Of a stretch of 14,413 nucleotides of DNA, positions 3,874 to 14,413 are shown piece after piece. The position numbers and the translations under genes are program-made. The notes beneath the pieces are model-generated. The model was given only the letters and a program-made list of their open reading frames with translations, was not told the origin of the DNA and did no database searches. The DNA lies in assembly GCA_001828445.1 (NCBI GenBank), contig MHYJ01000101.1, positions 1 to 14,413 of the forward strand, in the 5' to 3' direction. Source of the stretch: Planctomycetes bacterium RBG_16_43_13 (lineage in GTDB: Bacteria > Planctomycetota > MHYJ01). How positions within the stretch are numbered: position 1 is the stretch's first letter; every line of letters begins with the position of its first letter.

Positions 3874-5823
3874 TTAGTGGTTATGCCCTTCCTCCTCTAT
3901 TTCTTTCTCCTCCTTATATATACCCGCACCTATCGCCGCAGGGAGGAAGGGTGATATTTTGAAGACAATGTTATCATTCTGCCGTTTCGCATAGTAGCTT
4001 TTTTCACTTATCTGTCTGATGAGGAGCGTATCCTCTACACGTTTCTTCGCCCCGCCTGCATCGACCTCTATCTCTGTGGTAATCTTTATATGCGGTTTGT
4101 TGAGTTTATACCTATTTACGAGTTCAGGGGTGCGACCTATAAATGATGTAACCCTCACTAACGAAAGCTCGGAGACAATTCTGTTAATTTTTTCTTCGTC
4201 TATCTCTTTATTCTTATTGCCCACTGCAGTCCATTTCCCTGTAGCATCATCAAGTTTGCAACTGTAGCTATCCTCTGCCTCCTTTCCACTCACCGTTTCA
4301 TATACCAGTTCGACTGAGATTCTCTTTATGCTCGTAGGCGGGATTGACATTATGACGTCATCTGCGAAGTTCAGCTCGCTGAGGAGGAGTACGTCGTAGT
4401 GGCGACGTTGTATCTGATATACCTGGCTCTCCCAGTCCTTTTTCATATATGCATCACCCAAGTCAGCCAATATGCTGAAGAGATATGATTTCGTAAATGT
4501 GCCGCCCTTGCCATCTTTCAACGTAACCGTAACTGTTGCCTTCGGCTCTTTTAAGCCATAAGTTGCCAGGTCCTGCGGCTCCTTCTCCAGAAATGCCGAG
4601 ACACGAATATCGAGCAACTTTGTTACAAACTGCTCTACCTTGTTCTCGCTTATCTTTATTCCTTCGGGCTTTTTGAGTGTCCATTTCTGCTCTTTGACCT
4701 TCTGCTTCTCTTTCTTACCATCTTTTTCGACCTCTTTCTCTACCTCGACTTCTATTCTCTCTATGATTGTCTCTCCAACAGATGTCTTTACTGCTATGAT
4801 TTGGATATCGTCGCGCTTGATGTCAAATACTATTGTAGAGCGGAGGTCGTCTCTCCCTTTTTTAAGTGCATTGAACTTATTGGCATCTACGACTGCAACC
4901 TCACTCATTGTCGGATTGAATGCATACGTCTTATCACTATTAGCAGGGGCGGTGCCGAATTGTATCTCGTATGGCTTGTCGTTATCTTTCTCGAAGATTT
5001 GAATCTTATTCTTTGGGATGTCTAATCCGAACTCTTTGAGGTCATCCTTTTTTGCTACGAAATCCTCAGCAGTCAAATCCTTCACGCCTGATATGAGGGC
5101 ATTGACTTGGCTATCCTCCAAACGTTCTGTATAAGGTTTTTCTAAATACCAGCCGTCGTCTCGGCGGGCGACCTCCGACTCCTCCTGCACATATTGCAAC
5201 TTACCACCCACCTCTTTAGAGAAACGTTCCCACATCCTTATCTTTGTAATCTTATACGGCTCATATTCGATTATATGCTTATTGCGGAGGGCGTTTATGT
5301 CCTTATTAAATTTGCCGAATGCATCCTTCGAGACAACGTATATATTCTCATCACCCTCGAGTTGGAGGTAGCATGTCTCTTTTTCTATACCTGACTCCTT
5401 CCCAAACTTTATTTTGTATTCCTTGCCATCTGAATATATTGAGACGGTGCATTTCGGCTTATCCAGTCCGTAGTCGGCTAAATTCAGCGTCTTCGCCGCT
5501 TCTTTTTTGACTACATTAAGTTTGTCCAGATTTTTAGCAGTGGATACTATGTCTATCATAACATACTCCTCTGCCCTTGCCTGTATCGGCTTTGTTATGA
5601 ACCATACGTCCTTACCCTTTTCATCTCTCTTTTCGAGGGTGATTTCACTGTCGTTGCGTCTCAACTCCATCTTGCTGATATTCTTTATACTATCAGGGTT
5701 GATGACTTTACGTTGCCATTTCTCCGTATCATCCGTAGGTCTCAACTTCGGTTCAACGAATAGGAAAAACCCGCCGAGCAGTAATCCTATAACCGCAAGT
5801 ATTATAGTGGTTTTGTAACTCAT
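3874..5823 (-). CDS. DUF4340-type membrane-anchored protein with four repeats
   Basis: The 649-aa protein has one N-terminal membrane anchor (about residues 5-23, ending FLFVEPK) and a large extracytoplasmic part. That part contains at least four copies of a motif of the form YGL-x-x-P-K followed by a beta-rich stretch: LADYGLDKPKCTV, LKEFGLDIPKNKI, LATYGLKEPKATV, and a degenerate VNRYKLNKPHIKI. This is the hallmark of the DUF4340 family, whose biochemical role is unknown. A Lys/Glu-rich stretch lies around residues 355-375, and the tail ends in a Glu-rich segment with HNH. A Shine-Dalgarno AAGGAGG lies 10 nt before the ATG, overlapping the end of the GldG-like gene. Location after the GldA/F/G-like genes is the common arrangement for this family, so it is probably an accessory subunit of that ABC system. 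Confidence 0.8.
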   Translation of the reverse strand: MSYKTTIILAVIGLLLGGFFLFVEPKLRPTDDTEKWQRKVINPDSIKNISKMELRRNDSEITLEKRDEKGKDVWFITKPIQARAEEYVMIDIVSTAKNLDKLNVVKKEAAKTLNLADYGLDKPKCTVSIYSDGKEYKIKFGKESGIEKETCYLQLEGDENIYVVSKDAFGKFNKDINALRNKHIIEYEPYKITKIRMWERFSKEVGGKLQYVQEESEVARRDDGWYLEKPYTERLEDSQVNALISGVKDLTAEDFVAKKDDLKEFGLDIPKNKIQIFEKDNDKPYEIQFGTAPANSDKTYAFNPTMSEVAVVDANKFNALKKGRDDLRSTIVFDIKRDDIQIIAVKTSVGETIIERIEVEVEKEVEKDGKKEKQKVKEQKWTLKKPEGIKISENKVEQFVTKLLDIRVSAFLEKEPQDLATYGLKEPKATVTVTLKDGKGGTFTKSYLFSILADLGDAYMKKDWESQVYQIQRRHYDVLLLSELNFADDVIMSIPPTSIKRISVELVYETVSGKEAEDSYSCKLDDATGKWTAVGNKNKEIDEEKINRIVSELSLVRVTSFIGRTPELVNRYKLNKPHIKITTEIEVDAGGAKKRVEDTLLIRQISEKSYYAKRQNDNIVFKISPFLPAAIGAGIYKEEKEIEEEGHNH

Positions 5824-5844
5824 AGATATGCTACCTCCTTATGA

Positions 5845-7296
5845 TTACTTTCTTCTCATAATCCAGGCAACGATACCGAGGACTATACCTATGGACGGAA
5901 ACACAACTATACTGAGCCAGAATATTTTATCCAATTGTGTTTTGTCGAGGACGAGCGGCGTCGCCTTAAACTCTTTAGGCGGAATGGCTATCTCGTTCTC
6001 CCTCTCTAAAAGCCACTTGAGGCAATTGCTAACATAATTAATATCAATAATGGAGCCCAAAACAACGAGCCGTGCCGCGCCTTTTTTACCTTTATCCTTT
6101 TCGTCGCTGACATCTATCTGAACAGCTACACCTAAAGAGATTGGACCTTTTCTATCTATACCAGGGTCAAACTGCGGTCTCTTTTTCGTATCATACAAGA
6201 AACTTATGTCACTTTCAGCATAGCCATTGTCCAGCCACATCAGAGATGCCGCTCTGACCTTCTCATCCCCTTTTATAGTAGAGGATGGTTCAACCTCACA
6301 GCAAAGTGGTAGGACAAGGTCTCTATCGCCAAGCTTAGAATTTATAGGATGTGCTTCATTATACCTTTCCGGTATTATGTAACCGGGCATCTGCACAAAG
6401 GATTTCTCTGCTAACACTACATTATTCTCATAGTGGACGCCCCACACCTCGAGAAAATCCTCCATCCCACACTTCCTATCAGGGAAGAGCGTAACGAAGA
6501 ATCGCCCGCCTCTTTTCAAATACTCATCCAAGGCGCGTTTCTCATCCTGAGTAACCTCTGCACCCGGCGCCACCATTATGAGTGCCGCACAGTCATCCGG
6601 CACCTTTTTCGTCTGTGTCAACTTTATACTTTCTACCTGATACCCATCACGGGCGAGAAGGTGCGTATATTGGGATATAACATTCTCCTGCTCATTATGC
6701 CCTACTGCTATATATATCTTAACCTCCTCAAACGCTACCTGTTTTATCGTAGAGGTGAATGCACTCTCGGCACTGAATGTCTTTATGGCACCTGTCCTAT
6801 CGGCAATATATACGCTCTCAATATTTACCGTCTTCCACTTCTCACCGCATACGAATATTATATCATTCGCATTAACCGATATATTTTTAAGCCGCCGCAG
6901 GACCTCTTTATTGGATTCTGTTAGCTCCTCTATGTTTAGACGGCTATTATAGACCTTATACTCATCCAGTAAATCCCTCGCCTTCTGCCACGCATTAACC
7001 ATATCCTCACGAGTAAATTGCGGGATTAGAAATGGATAAACATATACCGTTACATCCTTATTCAGCCGACCCAATACATTCTTCGTCTCATCAGACACTG
7101 CATACAGTTTCTCTGAGGTAATGTCCTTCCTTATATAATATTTTGCGGCAACATTATTGACGCCTACTATTATGGCAAGAAGTATAGCAGTCATAATAAT
7201 AGTATTCGTCCATGCGAGGAGACGTTTCCCGCTACTCCAGGACTTGCCTGTCTCCTTTGAAGCGATTGCCTCGTCTATCCTTGTCTTCTCATCCAT
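5845..7296 (-). CDS. GldG-like ABC-transporter auxiliary protein
   Basis: This is a 483-aa protein of the GldG / ABC_transp_aux type: a cytoplasmic N-terminal tail, one membrane helix (about 30-48), a large extracytoplasmic domain beginning RKDITSEKLYAVSDETKNVL, and a C-terminal membrane helix followed by the basic end MRRK. The extracytoplasmic domain resembles a Rossmann-like fold without obvious catalytic residues; its role in the family is structural or regulatory and not well defined. I place the start at the ATG at 7296, not the in-frame GTG at 7311, because GGAGG stands 8 nt before the ATG, while AGGAGG lies almost against the GTG. With this start the gene follows the permease by 5 bp instead of overlapping it. 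It acts with the permease and ATPase encoded just upstream. Confidence 0.82.
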   Translation of the reverse strand: MDEKTRIDEAIASKETGKSWSSGKRLLAWTNTIIMTAILLAIIVGVNNVAAKYYIRKDITSEKLYAVSDETKNVLGRLNKDVTVYVYPFLIPQFTREDMVNAWQKARDLLDEYKVYNSRLNIEELTESNKEVLRRLKNISVNANDIIFVCGEKWKTVNIESVYIADRTGAIKTFSAESAFTSTIKQVAFEEVKIYIAVGHNEQENVISQYTHLLARDGYQVESIKLTQTKKVPDDCAALIMVAPGAEVTQDEKRALDEYLKRGGRFFVTLFPDRKCGMEDFLEVWGVHYENNVVLAEKSFVQMPGYIIPERYNEAHPINSKLGDRDLVLPLCCEVEPSSTIKGDEKVRAASLMWLDNGYAESDISFLYDTKKRPQFDPGIDRKGPISLGVAVQIDVSDEKDKGKKGAARLVVLGSIIDINYVSNCLKWLLERENEIAIPPKEFKATPLVLDKTQLDKIFWLSIVVFPSIGIVLGIVAWIMRRK

Positions 7297-7301
7297 AAAA
7301 A

Positions 7302-8033
7302 CTACCTCCACCTCCTGCTTTCAACCACCCTCACCGTCAGGAATAGAAACAACACAACGAGCGAGAGCAGATATACGATATCATAGCTATAGACCACACC
7401 CTTCACTAATGCCGACATATGCCTTTCAATATTCACATAGCCCAATAGTTTTCTCCAGATGGACTCCTTATCCTGTATGCTGTTGGCAAGTATATCTGTA
7501 ATAAGTAAAAATATAGAAATTATCAGGGTTATTATTCCTGCGGATATCTGGTTACTGCACATACTCGAGATGAATAGCCCAAGCGAGAAGAGCGTCATAG
7601 CAAGCAGTATTAGTGCCAAATATCCCCCTACAACCTCACCGTTGTCCAATGTCGCATAACTTGAGAGCGTTACGAGATATAGAAGGGACGGGATGAGTAA
7701 CAAGATATAGAATGAGACCGCCGCAAGGAACTTCGCAAATACTATCTGGAAGTCCGTTATAGGTGCTGTCATAAGTGTCTCAAACGTTCCCCTATTTTTC
7801 TCCTCCGCTAAAAGCCGCATAGTTATGAGAGGCATCATAAAAATGGTCAAGGACAACATTGCACTTGTCGCACTCTGATACGAGGCGGGGAGACCATTTG
7901 CTATAGCACCATATACACCCGCATAGAAGAAATAGCCAGTGAAGAGCATATACACCGTTATTATGATATATGCCATCGGCGAGATGAAATATACGCCGAC
8001 TTCCCTTTTTACGAGCGTAAGTAAAGTTGCCAT
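7302..8033 (-). CDS. ABC-2 type transporter permease (GldF-like)
   Basis: The 243-aa integral membrane protein has about six hydrophobic segments. It starts with the family-typical LVKREVGVYFISPMAYII and contains MMPLITMRLLAEEKNRGTFE, the conserved ABC-2 segment that couples to the ATPase, then TLMTAPITDFQIVFAKFLAA. It ends in RVVESRRWR, a tail common in this permease group. Together with the ATPase it forms the transporter core; the substrate is unknown. In Bacteroidetes the related GldAFG proteins are linked to gliding, but homologous cassettes are widespread in non-gliding bacteria, so motility should not be inferred. The gene starts 8 bp after the ATPase stop and has only a weak AAAGAT element upstream. 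Confidence 0.88.
   Translation of the reverse strand: MATLLTLVKREVGVYFISPMAYIIITVYMLFTGYFFYAGVYGAIANGLPASYQSATSAMLSLTIFMMPLITMRLLAEEKNRGTFETLMTAPITDFQIVFAKFLAAVSFYILLLIPSLLYLVTLSSYATLDNGEVVGGYLALILLAMTLFSLGLFISSMCSNQISAGIITLIISIFLLITDILANSIQDKESIWRKLLGYVNIERHMSALVKGVVYSYDIVYLLSLVVLFLFLTVRVVESRRWR
7305..7309 (-). promoter_or_regulatory. Ribosome binding site that decides the GldG-like start
   Basis: GGAGG on the minus strand, overlapping the last codons of the permease gene, sits 8 nt before the ATG at 7296. This favours that ATG over the GTG at 7311. Confidence 0.7.
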
Positions 8034-8041
8034 TTTAATCT

Positions 8042-8989
8042 TTAATCTTTCCCCACTCCTGTCAACTCCACAAATGCATCCTCAAGGGACGCTTTCTCAA
8101 ATGCGAGCTCCCTCACTGCCCAATTATTCTTAACTGCGAGGTCATATATCCCCTCCCGCACGTCCACGCCGTCTTTCGTCTCTATCCTCAACCGTGTAAA
8201 GCCATCACCAGAATCGCCACCATATAAACTTACACGTTCTACACTTTCCAATCCTCCTATCTTATCCTTTGCAGTATCGCCATCACACTTCACCTCCAGA
8301 CGAACACGCCCTACGCCCTTTGTAACCTGTCTCACTATCTCGTTCTGCGTCCCGGATGCCACAATGCCTCCCTTATTTATAATCATTACCCTGTTACACA
8401 TAATCTCCACTTCTGAGAGGATGTGAGTAGAGAGTATGACGGTGTGTTTCTTGCCGAGTTCTTTTATGAGCCCTCGCACCTGCCTTATTTGATTAGGGTC
8501 GAGACCGATAGTCGGTTCATCTAATATCACTATCTCGGGATTATGAACTATGGCATCCGCAAGCCCAACCCGTTGACGATAGCCCTTAGAGAGATGACCT
8601 ATGATGCGGCTTCGCACATCAGTTAGACCACATCTTTCTAAAGCATCACCTACCCTTTTCTTTCGCTCGGATGATGGCACTTGCTTTATCTTCGCCCTAA
8701 AGTTTATATATTCGCCTACCCGCATCTCGGTGTAGAGCGGATTATTTTCGGGCAGGTAGCCAACCCGTCTCCTCACCTCCAGCGACTGCCTCACTACATC
8801 AAAACCCGCCACCCGCGCCATTCCAGAGGTTGGGGGGACAAAGCAGGTGAGCATCCGCATCGTCGTCGTCTTCCCCGCACCATTCGGACCGAGGAAGCCG
8901 ACTATCTCGCCCCGCTCGACCGTGAAGCTGACATCATCCACAGCCACTACGCCGGGATACGTTTTCGTTAAGTTCTTAACTTCTATCAT
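8042..8989 (-). CDS. ABC transporter ATP-binding protein (GldA-like)
   Basis: The 315-aa ATPase has all motifs: Walker A GPNGAGKT (34-41), the Q-loop region VGYLPENNPLY, in which Glu replaces the usual Gln as is common in the GldA-type subgroup, signature LSKGYRQRV (133-141), Walker B IVILDEP (153-159), D-loop GLDP and the switch histidine in STHILSEVE (His189). About 100 residues follow the nucleotide-binding domain, forming the C-terminal domain seen in ABC-2 exporters and GldA. It powers the neighbouring permease. It is the first gene of its unit: a strong sigma70-like promoter lies about 66 bp upstream. The start has no clear Shine-Dalgarno, but the protein begins exactly where the family does. 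Confidence 0.93.
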   Translation of the reverse strand: MIEVKNLTKTYPGVVAVDDVSFTVERGEIVGFLGPNGAGKTTTMRMLTCFVPPTSGMARVAGFDVVRQSLEVRRRVGYLPENNPLYTEMRVGEYINFRAKIKQVPSSERKKRVGDALERCGLTDVRSRIIGHLSKGYRQRVGLADAIVHNPEIVILDEPTIGLDPNQIRQVRGLIKELGKKHTVILSTHILSEVEIMCNRVMIINKGGIVASGTQNEIVRQVTKGVGRVRLEVKCDGDTAKDKIGGLESVERVSLYGGDSGDGFTRLRIETKDGVDVREGIYDLAVKNNWAVRELAFEKASLEDAFVELTGVGKD

Positions 8990-9146: not shown

Positions 9147-12100
9147 TCACTCTACCTGGAATTCTATCGGCTTGGTAGAGGCAGATTTATCCGGACTGTA
9201 GTATTCGTAGACAGTAGAAGAAGGGGCTTTTGCCTTAATGGGATATCGCGCCTTTAGACGATAATCCATTTTTACATCCTTCCCCCGCTCCAAAGCACCA
9301 ATATAGAGGGTGATTTGCCTCCCTGTAATAGCATATTTATCAATTATGTGGTCCGATACCAACCGCTCCAAATCCGCCGCCTCGACGCTAAAGCCGGGAG
9401 GAATGCCAAGGTCAGCAATCACCATAAACGTCGGCATCGCCTCGTTATAGCGAATCCTAACAGATGCTGTAACCGTATCATCCGTCCTAAGTTTCGTCTT
9501 ATTGTAGCTAACATCTATCGTCAGTGGTGGCGACTTCTCCGACAGCTCCGATAACTCACTCCACGGAATGTAATAACGTCCAACGATTTGATATGCGACA
9601 TTAACCTCGCCCTCCATCTCTAAACGCACCTCATTCTCGCCCTCCCGCAGGTAGGCACTAATGTTAATCTGTTGCATTGCATCGCTATTTTTCTCTGTAA
9701 ACTCCTCAAAGCCGCTCTCGACCTTGATGCCGTTTATGTAGGACGTTACGATTCCCTTATTCTTAGCACTTGAGAAACTCTTTGCCGCCTCTAAAAGTGT
9801 CTTGATGCACAGAAGCGTTGCCTGTGTCGAATGCCAGCCACCATAACTATCTTTAGCACGTGTAATATAGTGTAGCGACTTCTCTACCAACGACGGCTCG
9901 TATCTTGCCTTAATGAATGCGTAGGTTGCAAGTGCTGTCGCCTCCAAGTCAGCACTCTCCCCACTCGAATAGGTTACACCTTGAATAGTTGTATCCCAAT
10001 AGGATACCTTTTCCTTCTCGCTAATTCGGATGCCACCTTTGAGTTTAGCCAAGATATCACTACAAGCAGGGGAATTACCACCATAATAAGCAATCAGGGC
10101 GTTGGCACAGAGGGCTTGGACATAGGGGTCCTTCGCTTCAGAGAGATGTCTCTTTATATAATTTATAGCTCCACCGACTGCAGAGTCCCTGTAGCCCGCT
10201 TCAGCTAATGCCCACGTTACATAAGCGGTTACGGGAAGCCGTCCATTCGAGGAGAGCTGGCGCCACGTGTGCATATCTCTGTCCAATGACCACGAGCCAT
10301 CACTATTTTGCTTAGAACGCAGAAATCCATACGCACGGTCTATAACCCCGCTGTCTATCTCATATACCTTTTTCATATCGCTGAGGAGTAAGATACCATA
10401 AGCAGAGAGGATAACCTTGGCAGGTGGCTGACCATACCAATCGAAACCACCCGTCCCACTAACCTCAAACGTTAGGAGCCGCTGATAACTTACGTTAATC
10501 TTCTGCTCTATCTCCATCTGTTTTTCAGGGGTCAACTGACCCGTCTCCTTCAGATAGCCCATCACGAGCACATTCGGATAGGCAATCGAGGATGTCTGCT
10601 CAAATCAGCCATAAGGGAGGCGGACCAAACCCTCTAACCCTTGAACGACCTCACTAAAGCGACCGGGATAGAGACGGACAAGTAGCACGGATGCATTGTC
10701 AATGGCATTTTTAGGTATGCTAACTCTGTGGATGCATTCCTTATCCAGACGGTCGCTGATGTTGATTTCGTATTCCCTGCCATTGGGCAGGACCTGAATC
10801 TGCCTTCGGATGGCATCTTTCAAACCCTCCGACCCCGCCGCATAGACAGTAAGGGTATGTAGCCCTACTTCTTTTACGCGGATACGGAAGTAGCGAACGC
10901 CGATGTCGGAAGCACCTAAGGTAAGCTCCTTTGTATCGCTTGCCTCAAGTAGTTCAAACCAATTCCCCCTCTCAAACTGGAGTGCTATTGTCTGGTTTTT
11001 TTTGAGGTAGTTGTATATAGCAATCGGGATAGAAACCTCATCCTGTTGCATAAGAGTTACCGGCAGGTCGAGGTCGATGAAGAAATCCTGAAATACATTG
11101 ATACCGCGCTCGTGTGAGCCGAGCCGACCATCACGCGAGACCGCTTGGCTGACCATACGCCACGTGGTAATCGAGTCCGCCGGCTTATCTATTATTAGGG
11201 ACGCCCGACCCCACTTGTCTGTAATCAACTCCGGTTGCCAGAGCAGTGCCTCAGGAAAATATTGACGCAGGCGGAAGGACGTCTTATCCTGAAGGGCTGA
11301 ACGGGGGGATGAATCATCAGAAGAACTTTTTTTCGAACGAACATCACTGGTCGAGGCAAAATCAGAGGGGGCCTCTGCTGAAGGGAAAAACGTACTACTA
11401 TCACCCCCGATGTTGGACAGCTTCTCACGCCGACCACTCGCAATAGCAGTTGGGCTTGTTAGCATTATTTTTTCGTAGCTTATTCTGGACCGAGAAATAC
11501 CAGGCATAAGAAACATGAACATGCAAATAAGCACTAGCACGGAGATTACTCCCAAACGAGACAGATAATAGAGGCGACGGCTTCGGCTTCGGAGCCAGGT
11601 AATCCCCCAGAAAAATAGAACCATTATCCCACCCCCCGCTCCAATCGTAGCAAGGAGTGCTAATGAGGGCCATATATCGTCCCGAAAGCTCAAGTCCATA
11701 TCATAGATGAAATGGAGAATTAGATATATCTCTAAAATTGCAACGGGTGGAAATAATGACCATATCGTTATGCGAATCCAGTCCCTCTTGAAGGCACGGA
11801 AGCAGAGTTTATAGAGCCAGATACAGAAAACCACCAATGCAATAACAATAGGAATAGCTACAAAAATGAGAGCCGCTATAGGGACGATAGAAATGGCAAT
11901 TTCTATAATGGTATCATTAAACTCTTTTATCTCCTGCCTGAGTTTTCTCTCCGCATCCGCAGAATTAACCCGTCCGAGTGGATTTACTGTCTCCGATTTC
12001 GCTGCTACAGCTACGAGCACCTCCGGTGATATTGTCTGGGGAGGCGGTGTGATTAGGACTTCCGGTGTGGGGCATCCTTTGATTTGGTAACGTGGCTTGA

Positions 12101-14099
12101 GGAGGTCTTCTTCCAGTGCGAAGTAGACCTTCTCCAATCCTGCCCGATTTTCCTGAAGGGCATAGACCGCCTCATCTACTGCAGTTATGCCCAGCGCCGA
12201 CTGGGTAGGCCGCCCCCGCTCATCAACCACTTCAAAGTTGATTTTAATCTGCTCACCCGGCTTATATTGTTTCTTATCGAGCGTTGGGCGAATTGTAAGA
12301 TTTTGCGGTAGGTCAACAAATATGATGCGTGAGTCGCGTGCTATATTCCCATCCGAGCGAATTTTATAGGCATTGAGTTGAAATATCCCAAACAAGTCAA
12401 CGGGGACGTCGAACAAAAGTTCACCCCTCCCATCCTTGATAGGGAGTGTCTTGGTCAGGATGGTCTGCCCACTCTTTACGATGTCGAGATATACTGTGCC
12501 AGACGGATAGCCGGAAACGACTACTATGGACATCGTTTCACCCCCTTTATATGAGACCTTATCAGTACGTAGGACGAAGTCGTTGGCAGAAATAACAAAG
12601 TTTAATTTACCGGAAGCACGATTCCCCATCTTGTCTCTGACTGTATAATTTAGCAGTTTATTATCGACCTTCAGTTTTATACGCGCTATGCCGTTTTCAC
12701 CTGTTTGTAGTTTTGCACCGTTACTGAGGGTAATTTCCGTTTGAGCCGGTGAGCCGTCAGGATATGCGGTAACGAAATAGATTACATTTTCTATATTATA
12801 GACCACCGCACCGCCCTCCGGAATGGCACTGAGTTTAAGTATATCCTGCGAGACCGTAACACTATGGACCTTTTTCTCCCTATGCTCTGCGTTATCTGCT
12901 ACCTCAACGGTCAGTGATAGTATAGCGTCGCCCTTCGCAAGTTCTGTCCCGAAGAATTTCTTGGGAAGCACCGTCTCGAAAGTTGCTACGCCGTTCTCAT
13001 CCAACGTCTCTTTCAGTTTTTCTACAGGTGTCCATTTATCGACTAAATAAGCCGCAAGGGTAATTTCTACTCCTCCTTTACTTACGGGCTTGCCAAAGAA
13101 ATACTCCGCCTTTATGCTCCCTTTAATCCTTTCACCCGGCTGATAGAACGTTTTGTCGGTAGTAACATCAAGGCGGAACTTTGGCAGGACGTAACGTTTT
13201 ACATCTACTACCTTTTCTGACTTTATGCCCTCAATCGTTGCCGTGAGGCGATAATACCCCAAGTTTATTTCATCTGCGAGCTGGAAGTCGCAGGAGGCAA
13301 TTCCAAACTCAGATGTCTCGACCTCCTTCTTATAGACCTTATTTCCTTTAGGGTCTTCGACCTCGAAAAGCGCCGTTCTTTTCTGCAGGGGCGTGAGGTT
13401 GAAGTTAGTCAGTGAGAGTAGCCGCATATGAATTACCTGATTGGGCTGGTAGATTGGCTTATCAGTGGTGAGCAAAATCTTGAAGTCACGTTTGACAGTT
13501 ACAGCATTGTTAATTGTATATGAGCCGACAGAGGTAACGAGACGATACTCGCCCGGCAGAAGGTCTGGCAATGTAAAATTGCAGTTGACCACGCCATCTG
13601 TGTCTGCATCAAACTTTCCCAACGGATACGTCTCACCTTCTTTAGAACGTATCTCAAGTGAAGTCCTCTTAATAGGAACTCCCTTCCCAGTCGGGTCTTT
13701 CACTAATAGACGTACTGACGAATTCCCTTTGCTTTGAAAGGTAGTTTGTCCATATAGGATGATGTCATACTTGGCAACGCTTTGTGAATTGATGTATATG
13801 ACTACACCTACGAAAATAAGCAAGAGGGCGGCGGATAACAAACCTGCATACTTTAATACCTTTCGCAAGGACGGCTTGCGTTGGACAGGAAGTAACGCAA
13901 TCACTCTTTGAACGAGGTCTGAAGAGGGTTTAGAGAGTTGTAACGTCCGACGCACCAATTCATCGTTCTTCTGCCATAAAGTTAGTCGCTTCGCACAAGA
14001 GGCACAGGTATGAAGATGGGTTTCCACCTCCAGACGCTCTTCTTTTGAGAGCTCGTTGTCGAGGTAATAGGATAATGTGGTAATATCTTCGCACTTCAT
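9147..14099 (-). CDS. Anti-sigma/alpha-2-macroglobulin fusion with in-frame UGA at the thioester residue (candidate selenoprotein)
   Basis: One reading frame of 1650 codons, interrupted only by the UGA at codon 1165. Residues 1-70 form a zf-HC2 anti-sigma domain (Cys3, His28, Cys32, Cys35); 84-103 are a membrane helix. Macroglobulin-type beta domains follow, with the hallmark TDKPIYQPNQ at 212-221. About 729-866 holds four membrane helices; about 870-940 is a Ser/Lys/Arg-rich stretch likely to be the protease bait. Then come RQYFPEALLWQPELITD and ADSITTWRM, typical of bacterial homologues, and the thioester domain with PYG-UGA-FEQTSS. His1277 in DMHTWRQL aligns with the catalytic His of complement C3. 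The C-terminus is a receptor-binding-type beta domain. The family traps proteases after bait cleavage and links to them through a Cys-Gln thioester. Here Gln1168 is present and the Cys codon is UGA. AAGGAGG lies 7 nt before the ATG, which overlaps the ECF sigma stop as ATGA. The alternative is a recent pseudogene. Confidence 0.85.
10566..10601 (-). promoter_or_regulatory. Candidate bacterial SECIS hairpin directly after the in-frame UGA
   Basis: Beginning 4 nt after the UGA, the RNA can fold as GAGCA/UGCUC (5 bp), CAU/AUG (3 bp), UCG/CGA (3 bp) and AU/AU (2 bp), capped by a UGCCU loop, with small bulges (GA and CC on the 5' side, C on the 3' side). The apical loop lies 21-25 nt after the UGA and has G as its second base. 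Position and loop G match what is known of SelB-binding SECIS elements, which sit inside the coding sequence just behind the UGA. The bulges make it imperfect and there is no clear bulged U as in E. coli fdhF. Confidence 0.42.
10605..10607 (-). other. In-frame UGA codon, probable selenocysteine (residue 1165)
   Basis: The codon lies between the codons for LVRLPYG and FEQTSSIAYPN. In thioester-containing alpha-2-macroglobulins this slot is always the thioester Cys (PYG-C-x-E-Q). Frame and homology are unbroken on both sides. UGA is a normal stop elsewhere in the window (1128-1130, 9147-9149, 14096-14098), so a general code change is excluded. Selenocysteine insertion is the favoured reading; TGC or TGT to TGA mutation is the alternative. 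Confidence 0.65.
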
Positions 14100-14413
14100 A
14101 GTACATCCTCCTTCTGCAATTTTACTTTTTCTTCTAAATTACGTCGTATACGACAAAGTTTTTCGCCGGTTGCAGTTACTGTCATATTCAGGGTATCTGC
14201 AATCTCTTTATAAGATAACTCCTCGATATAACGTAGGACTATAATCTCCCGCTCATCAGGTCTTAACTCTTGTAGTGCTTTCTGGACATACTCTTGCCTC
14301 TCCTGCTCTTCTACATTATCCTGTCCTACTGTGGACATACTTGGCATTTCAGCGAAAGGAGAGACATTACTTTGCGGTTGTTCTTTTTTCTTCCGACACC
14401 AATCGATAGCTGT
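14096..14413 (-). CDS. ECF-type RNA polymerase sigma factor, C-terminal part (runs off right edge)
   Basis: The frame is open from the window edge to the stop at 14096 and encodes 105 residues. It begins TAIDWCRKKKEQ, which matches the end of sigma region 2 (region 2.4, usually xAIDWLRRRxR). A linker of about 35 residues follows, then region 4: LQELRPDEREIIVLRYIEELSYKEIADTL, a helix-turn-helix that reads the -35 element, then RIRRNLEEKV. The internal ATG at 14347 is not the true start because region 2 sequence continues upstream of it. The stop overlaps the next gene's ATG by four bases (ATGA), the usual translational coupling of an ECF sigma factor and its cognate anti-sigma factor. The downstream partner carries an anti-sigma zinc finger, so this sigma factor is very likely held by that membrane protein and released on a signal. 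Confidence 0.9.
   Translation of the reverse strand, partial: TAIDWCRKKKEQPQSNVSPFAEMPSMSTVGQDNVEEQERQEYVQKALQELRPDEREIIVLRYIEELSYKEIADTLNMTVTATGEKLCRIRRNLEEKVKLQKEDVL

What the first reader, a model, noticed from the sequence alone, without database searches (positions are those of the whole stretch)
10605..10607. UGA exactly at the thioester cysteine of an alpha-2-macroglobulin: a possible selenoester protease trap
Seen: a 1650-codon alpha-2-macroglobulin frame has a single internal UGA, precisely at the Cys of PYG-C-x-E-Q, with the partner Gln three residues later and 485 codons of good homology after it. Known: Cys/UGA replacement at a reactive Cys with intact flanks is the classic signature of selenoproteins; the family normally forms a Cys-Gln thioester. 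Inferred: a Sec-Gln selenoester, more reactive than a thioester. I know of no described selenoprotein of this family. A random nonsense mutation would have to strike this one functional codon.
Basis: partly seen in the sequence, partly recalled or inferred. Interest (0 to 1): 0.95.

Follow-up and report, generated by a model that had tools for sequence, protein, structure and literature searches.

The report
Selenocysteine-armed bacterial alpha-2-macroglobulin
Bacteria of at least four phyla carry alpha-2-macroglobulin genes with a UGA codon exactly where the reactive cysteine codon should be, most likely read as selenocysteine, which would give this presumed protease trap a selenium bond more reactive than the usual sulfur one.

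Summary
The window gene (9147-14099, minus strand, Planctomycetota-like) has one in-frame UGA, at the thioester Cys codon. It is not a lone accident. 83 of 120 listed half-length homologues end exactly one residue before this slot. A genome scan gave 46 pattern matches, 45 of them real A2M frames with UGA at the slot. In 71 A2M stretches from 199 Planctomycetota genomes, all 24 in-frame stops are UGA at this codon. All 44 genomes checked have selA and/or selB over cut-off. The RNA after the UGA folds better than synonymous shuffles in UGA genes, little so in Cys homologues. UGA and Cys forms interchange repeatedly on the tree. The partner Gln is kept in 55 of 55 UGA forms and no partner Cys is conserved, so a Sec-Gln selenoester is likelier than redox use. 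No such family was found in the literature searched, including a 2026 catalogue of 119 selenoprotein families. Selenium insertion, the selenoester and protease trapping remain untested; the window's own genome is not held.

The parts
9147..14099 (-). Sec-type alpha-2-macroglobulin gene, 1650 residues read through the internal UGA, terminal TGA at 9147-9149
10605..10607 (-). in-frame UGA at the thioester Cys slot (codon 1165), predicted Sec codon
   Evidence: slot shown by homologues
10596..10598 (-). codon of the partner Gln 1168 (FEQ), predicted acyl partner of the Sec
   Evidence: Gln in 55 of 55 UGA forms and 57 of 57 Cys forms
10557..10583 (-). predicted SECIS-like hairpin, class B: stem positions 25-34 with 41-51 counted from the U of UGA, 6-nt apical loop, bulged U at position 44, loop 31 nt after the UGA
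   Evidence: synonymous-shuffle z of the window -1.58
13992..14075 (-). zf-HC2 zinc-finger (anti-sigma type) domain, residues 9-36
   Evidence: 34.1 bits, cut-off 22.2
13767..13859 (-). predicted transmembrane segment, residues 81-111
   Evidence: hydropathy
13230..13478 (-). MG2 domain, residues 208-290
12156..12572 (-). A2M_BRD domain, residues 510-648
11478..11915 (-). four predicted transmembrane segments, residues 729-874, between BRD and A2M domain
   Evidence: hydropathy; four also in P0123, P0129 and P0003, three in P0124 and P0130
10977..11246 (-). A2M domain, residues 952-1041
9795..10601 (-). thioester domain (TED_complement) downstream of the UGA
   Evidence: fold and PDB comparison
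9174..9425 (-). receptor-binding domain (A2M_recep)
14096..14413 (-). ECF-type sigma factor (end of gene, cut by the window), overlapping the A2M start by 4 bp
   Evidence: a similar sigma gene matches in L013, L020, L031, L032

Best explanation
This is an alpha-2-macroglobulin gene whose UGA at the thioester Cys codon is most likely read as selenocysteine, giving a protein predicted to form a Sec-Gln selenoester. Shown by sequence: UGA at this one codon in many independent A2M genes of several phyla, kept reading frame and purifying selection after it, Sec genes in the relatives' genomes, and RNA structure specific to the UGA genes right after the UGA. Inferred: SelB delivers Sec through that hairpin; the Sec selenolate takes the acyl group of Gln three residues on, as Cys does in the ordinary family; the TED holds the selenoester shielded until a protease cleaves the protein, when it acylates the attacker. 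Selenium makes the acyl bond a better leaving group, so capture should be faster. Further inference: this copy is membrane-anchored and fused to an anti-sigma zinc finger beside an ECF sigma gene, so trapping may also signal.
For: UGA slot conserved: 83 of 120 listed N-half homologues end exactly there (their stop codon was not seen) and the other 37 have Cys; 45 of 46 genome loci found with a UGA pattern are true A2M frames with no other stop up to their end; 24 of 24 stops in 71 unanchored A2M stretches are UGA at the slot. Translation continues: dN below dS on both sides in 10 of 10 close pairs; FEQTSSxxYPN is conserved before the first possible start codon. Machinery: selB over cut-off 32 of 38, strong tRNA-Sec (67 bits or more) 29 of 38, selA 41 of 44 (1 of 14 control genomes), selA and/or selB 44 of 44. 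RNA: synonymous-shuffle z -1.71 in 54 UGA genes against -0.36 in 55 Cys genes, p 6e-8; no excess in the next stretch. Class A hairpin with a G-first loop: 16 of 54 UGA, 0 of 57 Cys; L026 and L114 have it, their tree neighbours with Cys do not. Not one clade: p-AU 2e-8. Gln 55 of 55, no conserved second Cys. The model matches native A2M, A2ML1, CD109 and C3.
Against: No protein or selenium data. The window's own genome is not held, so its sel genes are not shown. selB is common anyway: 134 of 199 genomes of the phylum of G012 (Planctomycetota), 99 of 201 of that of G024 and 157 of 201 of that of G010 (Chloroflexota), so co-occurrence is weak evidence; Cys forms also live in selB genomes (24 of the 30 Planctomycetota genomes that matched without a UGA copy). 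9 of 38 genomes lack a strong tRNA-Sec. The window's hairpin lacks the G in the first two loop positions of the published bacterial SECIS rule. Class A meets the rule's loop, stem and spacing but its 17-nt piece averages -6.9 kcal/mol, short of the rule's -7.5. 16 of 54 UGA genes fit none of my three classes, which were drawn from the UGA set. The window's plain RNA fold is unremarkable in 3 of 4 pieces tried. That the selenoester forms, or that the protein traps proteases, rests on family analogy.
Confidence: 0.87

Rival explanations
1. Nonsense mutation, decaying gene or sequencing error: the UGA is a chance stop and the gene is dead.
For: One window alone, with no read data, could not exclude it.
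Against: The same codon is UGA in 45 genome loci and in 24 of 24 stop-bearing stretches found without anchoring on the slot; no other internal stops; purifying selection on both sides in relatives.
Confidence: 0.01
2. The UGA is a working stop: a truncated A2M, or two chains made from one message, perhaps switched by selenium supply.
For: A GTG lies 12 codons after the UGA and predicted proteins in the database end at the slot.
Against: The 11 residues between the UGA and that GTG are among the most conserved of the family and cannot be made by re-initiation; Gln and the Gly before the slot are invariant; extra RNA structure follows the UGA; Cys sisters are single chains.
Confidence: 0.04
3. 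UGA is read by a sense tRNA as another residue (reassigned code, or Cys) with no selenium.
For: Cys is what homologues have at the slot.
Against: UGA also ends this gene and the DHODB and sigma genes in the window, and 7 of 46 UGA A2M frames, window included (9 of the 46 run off their locus); no other internal UGA in the 11 window genes checked; selA and/or selB in 44 of 44 genomes; the extra RNA structure would be unexplained.
Confidence: 0.02
4. Sec is inserted but works as a redox or metal-binding residue, not as a selenoester.
For: Many catalogued selenoproteins are redox proteins or carry redox-type motifs (PMC13188914, section 7).
Against: Glu and Gln of the thioester motif are kept in 55 of 55 UGA forms, and no second Cys is conserved in the TED (no column above 15% Cys except the slot). 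The motif is UxEQ, not UxxC or CxxU.
Confidence: 0.06

Closest known systems
Alpha-2-macroglobulin / CD109 / thioester-containing proteins (A2M family, PF00207, PF07678, PF07677)
   Same: Domain order, GCFEQ-type motif with Gln three residues on, native-form fold: the model matches human A2ML1, A2M, CD109 and C3 at TM 0.74-0.82 of the query.
   Different: UGA in place of the reactive Cys codon; N-terminal anti-sigma zinc finger and a four-TM insertion before the A2M domain.
E. coli / Salmonella bacterial A2M (ECAM, SaA2M; PMC4498604, passages read)
   Same: Proposed periplasmic, membrane-anchored protease trap with a shielded Cys-Gln thioester.
   Different: Those use Cys (CLEQ). In the sequence search of solved structures the window's C-terminal half matched animal A2M, CD109, TEP1 and complement, and no bacterial A2M was listed.
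Bacterial selenoproteins (119 families/subfamilies in the 2026 catalogue, PMC13188914 Table 1)
   Same: In-frame UGA at a reactive Cys, Cys homologues, structure right after the UGA, Sec machinery in the genomes.
   Different: No A2M or thioester protein is listed; Sec would do acyl transfer rather than redox or metal chemistry.
Chemical selenoester ligation (PMC9314092, start of abstract seen in the listing)
   Same: Acyl-Se bond with fast ligation kinetics.
   Different: Man-made reagent, not a gene-encoded internal bond.

Membership tests
Bacterial selenoprotein | In-frame UGA aligned with a Cys conserved in homologues | tested here: met
Bacterial selenoprotein | UGA homologues in other species | tested here: met
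   45 of 46 loci in 38 genomes of several phyla
Bacterial selenoprotein | Coding continues after the UGA under selection | tested here: met
   Pfam domains after the UGA
Bacterial selenoprotein | Sec machinery in genomes with the UGA gene | tested here: met
   selA and/or selB over cut-off in 44 of 44; strong tRNA-Sec 29 of 38; selD not searched
Bacterial selenoprotein | Sec machinery in the window's own genome | not testable with these tools
   no genome held; no tRNA or Rfam hit in the window
Bacterial selenoprotein | SECIS hairpin right after the UGA | tested here: inconclusive
   Set level: clear excess structure in UGA genes. Class A fits loop, stem and spacing of the published rule, its energy falls just short. 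Window: class B hairpin within the spacing rule but without G in the first two loop positions; 16 of 54 fit no class
Bacterial selenoprotein | Selenium in the protein | not testable with these tools
   needs mass spectrometry or 75Se labelling
Alpha-2-macroglobulin | MG2, MG3, BRD, A2M, TED and RBD domains | tested here: met
Alpha-2-macroglobulin | Thioester motif C-x-E-Q | tested here: not met
   E and Q present, Cys codon is UGA; it would be U-x-E-Q
Alpha-2-macroglobulin | TED/CUB/RBD fold in native arrangement | tested here: met
   model of residues 1065-1651, pLDDT 88.5; TM 0.79-0.82 to native A2M, A2ML1 and CD109 entries, 0.46 to activated 6tav
Alpha-2-macroglobulin | Bait cleavage and covalent protease capture | not testable with these tools
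   needs biochemistry

The most novel reading that the evidence does not exclude
These proteins hold the first natural internal selenoester: a Sec-Gln acyl bond used as a covalent warhead, gained or lost many times across A2M lineages together with a hairpin that lets SelB read the codon. They would be the first selenoproteins whose selenium does acyl transfer rather than redox or metal chemistry, and in this copy the trap is wired through an anti-sigma domain to an ECF sigma factor.
Probability: 0.7. Interest if true: 0.97.

Novelty: new variant of a known kind. Interest (0 to 1): 0.93.

Why it matters
Most known selenoproteins are thought to serve redox functions (PMC13188914, section 7). 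A Sec at the acyl site of a thioester protein would extend natural selenium chemistry to covalent capture and make the question 'what does Se add over S in an acyl warhead' directly testable, since matched Sec and Cys A2Ms exist in nature. It also suggests that gene prediction has cut a widespread gene family in two: 83 of 120 listed N-half homologues end at the slot.

Tried and rejected
Rfam and ARAGORN on the window: no hit. A plain shuffle test of the window's RNA fold was weak; the set-level synonymous-shuffle test against Cys homologues was the informative one. A scan with the published bacterial SECIS rule failed part-way (script error) and was not rerun; class structures drawn from the UGA set replaced it (thresholds: all pairs for A, 85% for B, 80% for G), which favours that set. 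The class-free test does not share this flaw. selB co-occurrence as the main proof was dropped because the background is 49-78%. Among the closest Planctomycetota matches (320 bits or more, slot covered) the 4 Cys-only genomes G066, G107, G153 and G196 have no selB over cut-off, while 12 of all 15 UGA genomes of that call do; but over all 30 Cys-only genomes of that one search have selB, so I give it little weight. Plasmid collection: no match. Two papers by Haft and co-workers were not held; Deng et al. 2026 was seen only as a reference and not looked up. L027 was dropped as a chance pattern match; L016, L027 and L030 were left out of the tree, as were rows with under 200 residues after the slot. 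tRNA-Sec hits of 47-54 bits were not counted as strong because control genomes ring at this level.

Full report
OBSERVATION. The minus-strand frame 14099..9147 is open for 1650 residues except for one TGA at 10607..10605. Before it lie zf-HC2, MG2, MG3, A2M_BRD and A2M domains, after it TED_complement and A2M_recep. The slot is that of the thioester Cys: 120 of 120 listed full-length homologues have Cys there. The best named hit of the window's AccC is a Planctomycetota protein at 82% (P0250); most named hits are Planctomycetota, one is Gemmatimonadales at 75%. No whole genome is held, and the window itself has no tRNA and no Rfam match.

IT RECURS. A search with the N-half alone, limited by length to fragments (856 proteins found, 120 listed), gave 83 proteins that end exactly at the Gly before the slot and 37 with Cys at the slot (84 end in P-x-G, of which P0100 spans the slot and ends elsewhere). 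Their stop codons cannot be seen, as these are proteins only. 81 of the 83 were clustered: 24 clusters at 70% identity over the last 200 residues. The nearest, P0123 (75% identity) and P0124 (62%), both end there. A scan of genome contigs for a UGA-containing motif gave 46 stretches; 45 are A2M frames with window homology and no other internal stop up to their end or the end of the locus; the other (L027, Desulfosporosinus) is chance. They lie in 38 genomes, by record title Planctomycetota, Chloroflexota, Deltaproteobacteria (Myxococcota), Abditibacteriales (Abditibacteriota) and two with no group in the title.

UNANCHORED CHECK. That scan was anchored on the slot, so I searched whole genomes with the protein instead. 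In 199 genomes of the phylum of G012 (Planctomycetota by record title) 71 stretches in 45 genomes matched at E <= 1e-40, with at most six candidates scored per genome. 24 stretches in 15 genomes hold one in-frame stop each, always TGA, never TAA or TAG; nine of these genomes were known from the scan, six were new. All 24 were read: each TGA is at the slot, even in A2Ms only 26-31% identical. In 201 genomes of the phylum of G010 (Chloroflexota) 7 stretches matched, one with TGA, at the slot, six with Cys. In 201 genomes of the phylum of G024 (an Abditibacteriales genome; taken as Armatimonadota, which no call names) 64 stretches matched in 62 genomes at E <= 1e-80. 62 stretches have no stop, one (G024) has TGA at the slot, and one (L110) has Cys at the slot and a TGA 456 codons on, near its end. 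There the slot was read in 31 of 64: 30 Cys (L084-L113) and G024.

CODING AFTER THE UGA. In 10 of 10 close pairs dN is below dS on both sides of the UGA. The 11 residues between the UGA and the first possible start (GTG) are among the most conserved, so re-initiation cannot explain them. UGA is an ordinary stop elsewhere: it ends this gene, DHODB and the sigma gene.

SEC MACHINERY. selB over cut-off in 32 of 38 genomes (2 of 14 controls). tRNA-Sec at 67 bits or more in 29 of 38; the looser count of 35 of 38 includes hits at the level of control genomes, of which 5 of 14 ring. selA over cut-off in 41 of 44 UGA genomes (1 of 14 controls). The three without selA have selB, and the seven without selB over cut-off have selA, so all 44 have at least one. 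selD was not searched. The necessary condition is met; it is not strong proof, since selB is common in these phyla: 134 of 199, 99 of 201 and 157 of 201.

RNA STRUCTURE. Against synonymous shuffles that keep the protein and hold G+C within two bases, the 57 nt after the slot fold with mean z -1.70 in 54 UGA genes and -0.36 in 55 Cys genes (of 57; the script scored 55); the next 54 nt show -0.01 (53) and -0.23 (55). With one codon table for both: -1.71 against -0.36, Mann-Whitney p 6e-8; window z -1.58. The rows are related, so the p is only a guide. Three hairpin designs appear. Class A (Chloroflexota, Abditibacteriales L026, Planctomycetota L114): 6-bp stem, 3-nt loop beginning with G, 17 nt after the UGA, in 16 of 54 UGA and 0 of 57 Cys genes; mean energy of the piece -6.9 kcal/mol against -0.4 in Cys genes, a little short of the -7.5 of the published rule. 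L026 and L114 have it while two Cys tree neighbours of each have 1-4 of 6 pairs, and L114 keeps it with another stem sequence. Class B, that of the window: 11 of 54 against 2 of 57, with changes on both sides at three pairs among ten rows; its loop lacks the early G of the rule. Class G: 11 of 54 against 2 of 57. 16 of 54 fit none.

HISTORY. On a tree of 112 TEDs (55 UGA, 57 Cys) the label needs at least 9 changes, 5 forced by well-supported branches; one clade of UGA forms is rejected, p-AU 2e-8 (quick tree, LG+G4; the slot letter is the same in all rows). The window sits in a clade of 12 UGA rows (support 99). This is the Sec/Cys exchange expected of selenoproteins.

MECHANISM. Glu and Gln of the motif are kept in 55 of 55 UGA forms and no other column of the TED alignment has Cys in more than 15% of them. 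Rows L001-L046 were found with a pattern that asks for Glu and Gln, but those from the protein searches keep them too. So the site looks like a thioester site with Se for S, not like UxxC redox sites. The model of the last 587 residues (pLDDT 88.5) matches native human A2ML1, oocyte A2M, CD109 and C3 with TM 0.74-0.82 and activated A2M 6tav with 0.46. Bait cleavage, exposure and capture are inferred from the family (PMC4498604, passages read). That selenoesters ligate fast is taken from the start of the abstract of PMC9314092. Not shown: Se in the protein, the selenoester, or protease capture.

KNOWN OR NEW. Full-text searches for macroglobulin with selenocysteine or selenoprotein gave only papers that look unrelated by title and abstract start; others on selenoprotein families and selenoesters are. 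The 2026 catalogue of 119 prokaryotic selenoprotein families (PMC13188914: sections 5 and 7 parts 1-2 of 3, and word searches of the main text) names no macroglobulin or thioester protein. deep-Sep (PMC12013277, word search and passages) names none. No NCBIfam model of this kind is among the hits of P0002 or P0123. Two Haft papers were not held and Deng 2026 was not looked up. I file it as a new variant: a predicted selenoprotein of the A2M family with a new use for Sec.

Noticed in passing
13992-14413, minus strand: The A2M starts with an anti-sigma-type zinc finger and a TM segment, and an ECF sigma gene lies directly upstream with a 4-bp overlap; a similar sigma gene matches in L013, L020, L031 and L032. 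A protease trap may double as a sigma-factor sensor.
   Followed up: partly
11478-11915, minus strand: Four predicted TM segments are inserted between the bait-region domain and the A2M domain, also in P0123, P0129 and P0003, three in P0124 and P0130.
   Followed up: partly
3874-8989, minus strand: Downstream genes: ABC ATPase, ABC-2 permease, a GldG-like ABC_transp_aux protein and a DUF4340 protein; no match to them in the 45 UGA loci held, which are at most 8 kb long.
   Followed up: partly
L114-L117 (genomes G152, G148, G219, G192): Distant A2Ms (26-28% identity) with UGA at the slot and motifs FEQCSS or [MF]EQTSAxVC, where a Cys follows in the motif or replaces the Tyr.
   Followed up: no
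G004 and G140: Single genomes that hold both a UGA copy and a Cys copy of the A2M.
   Followed up: no
G010 (L011, L077): A 5.4-Mb Anaerolineales genome, record titled chromosome, with UGA A2M, selA and tRNA-Sec but no selB over cut-off; possibly a divergent or broken selB.
   Followed up: no
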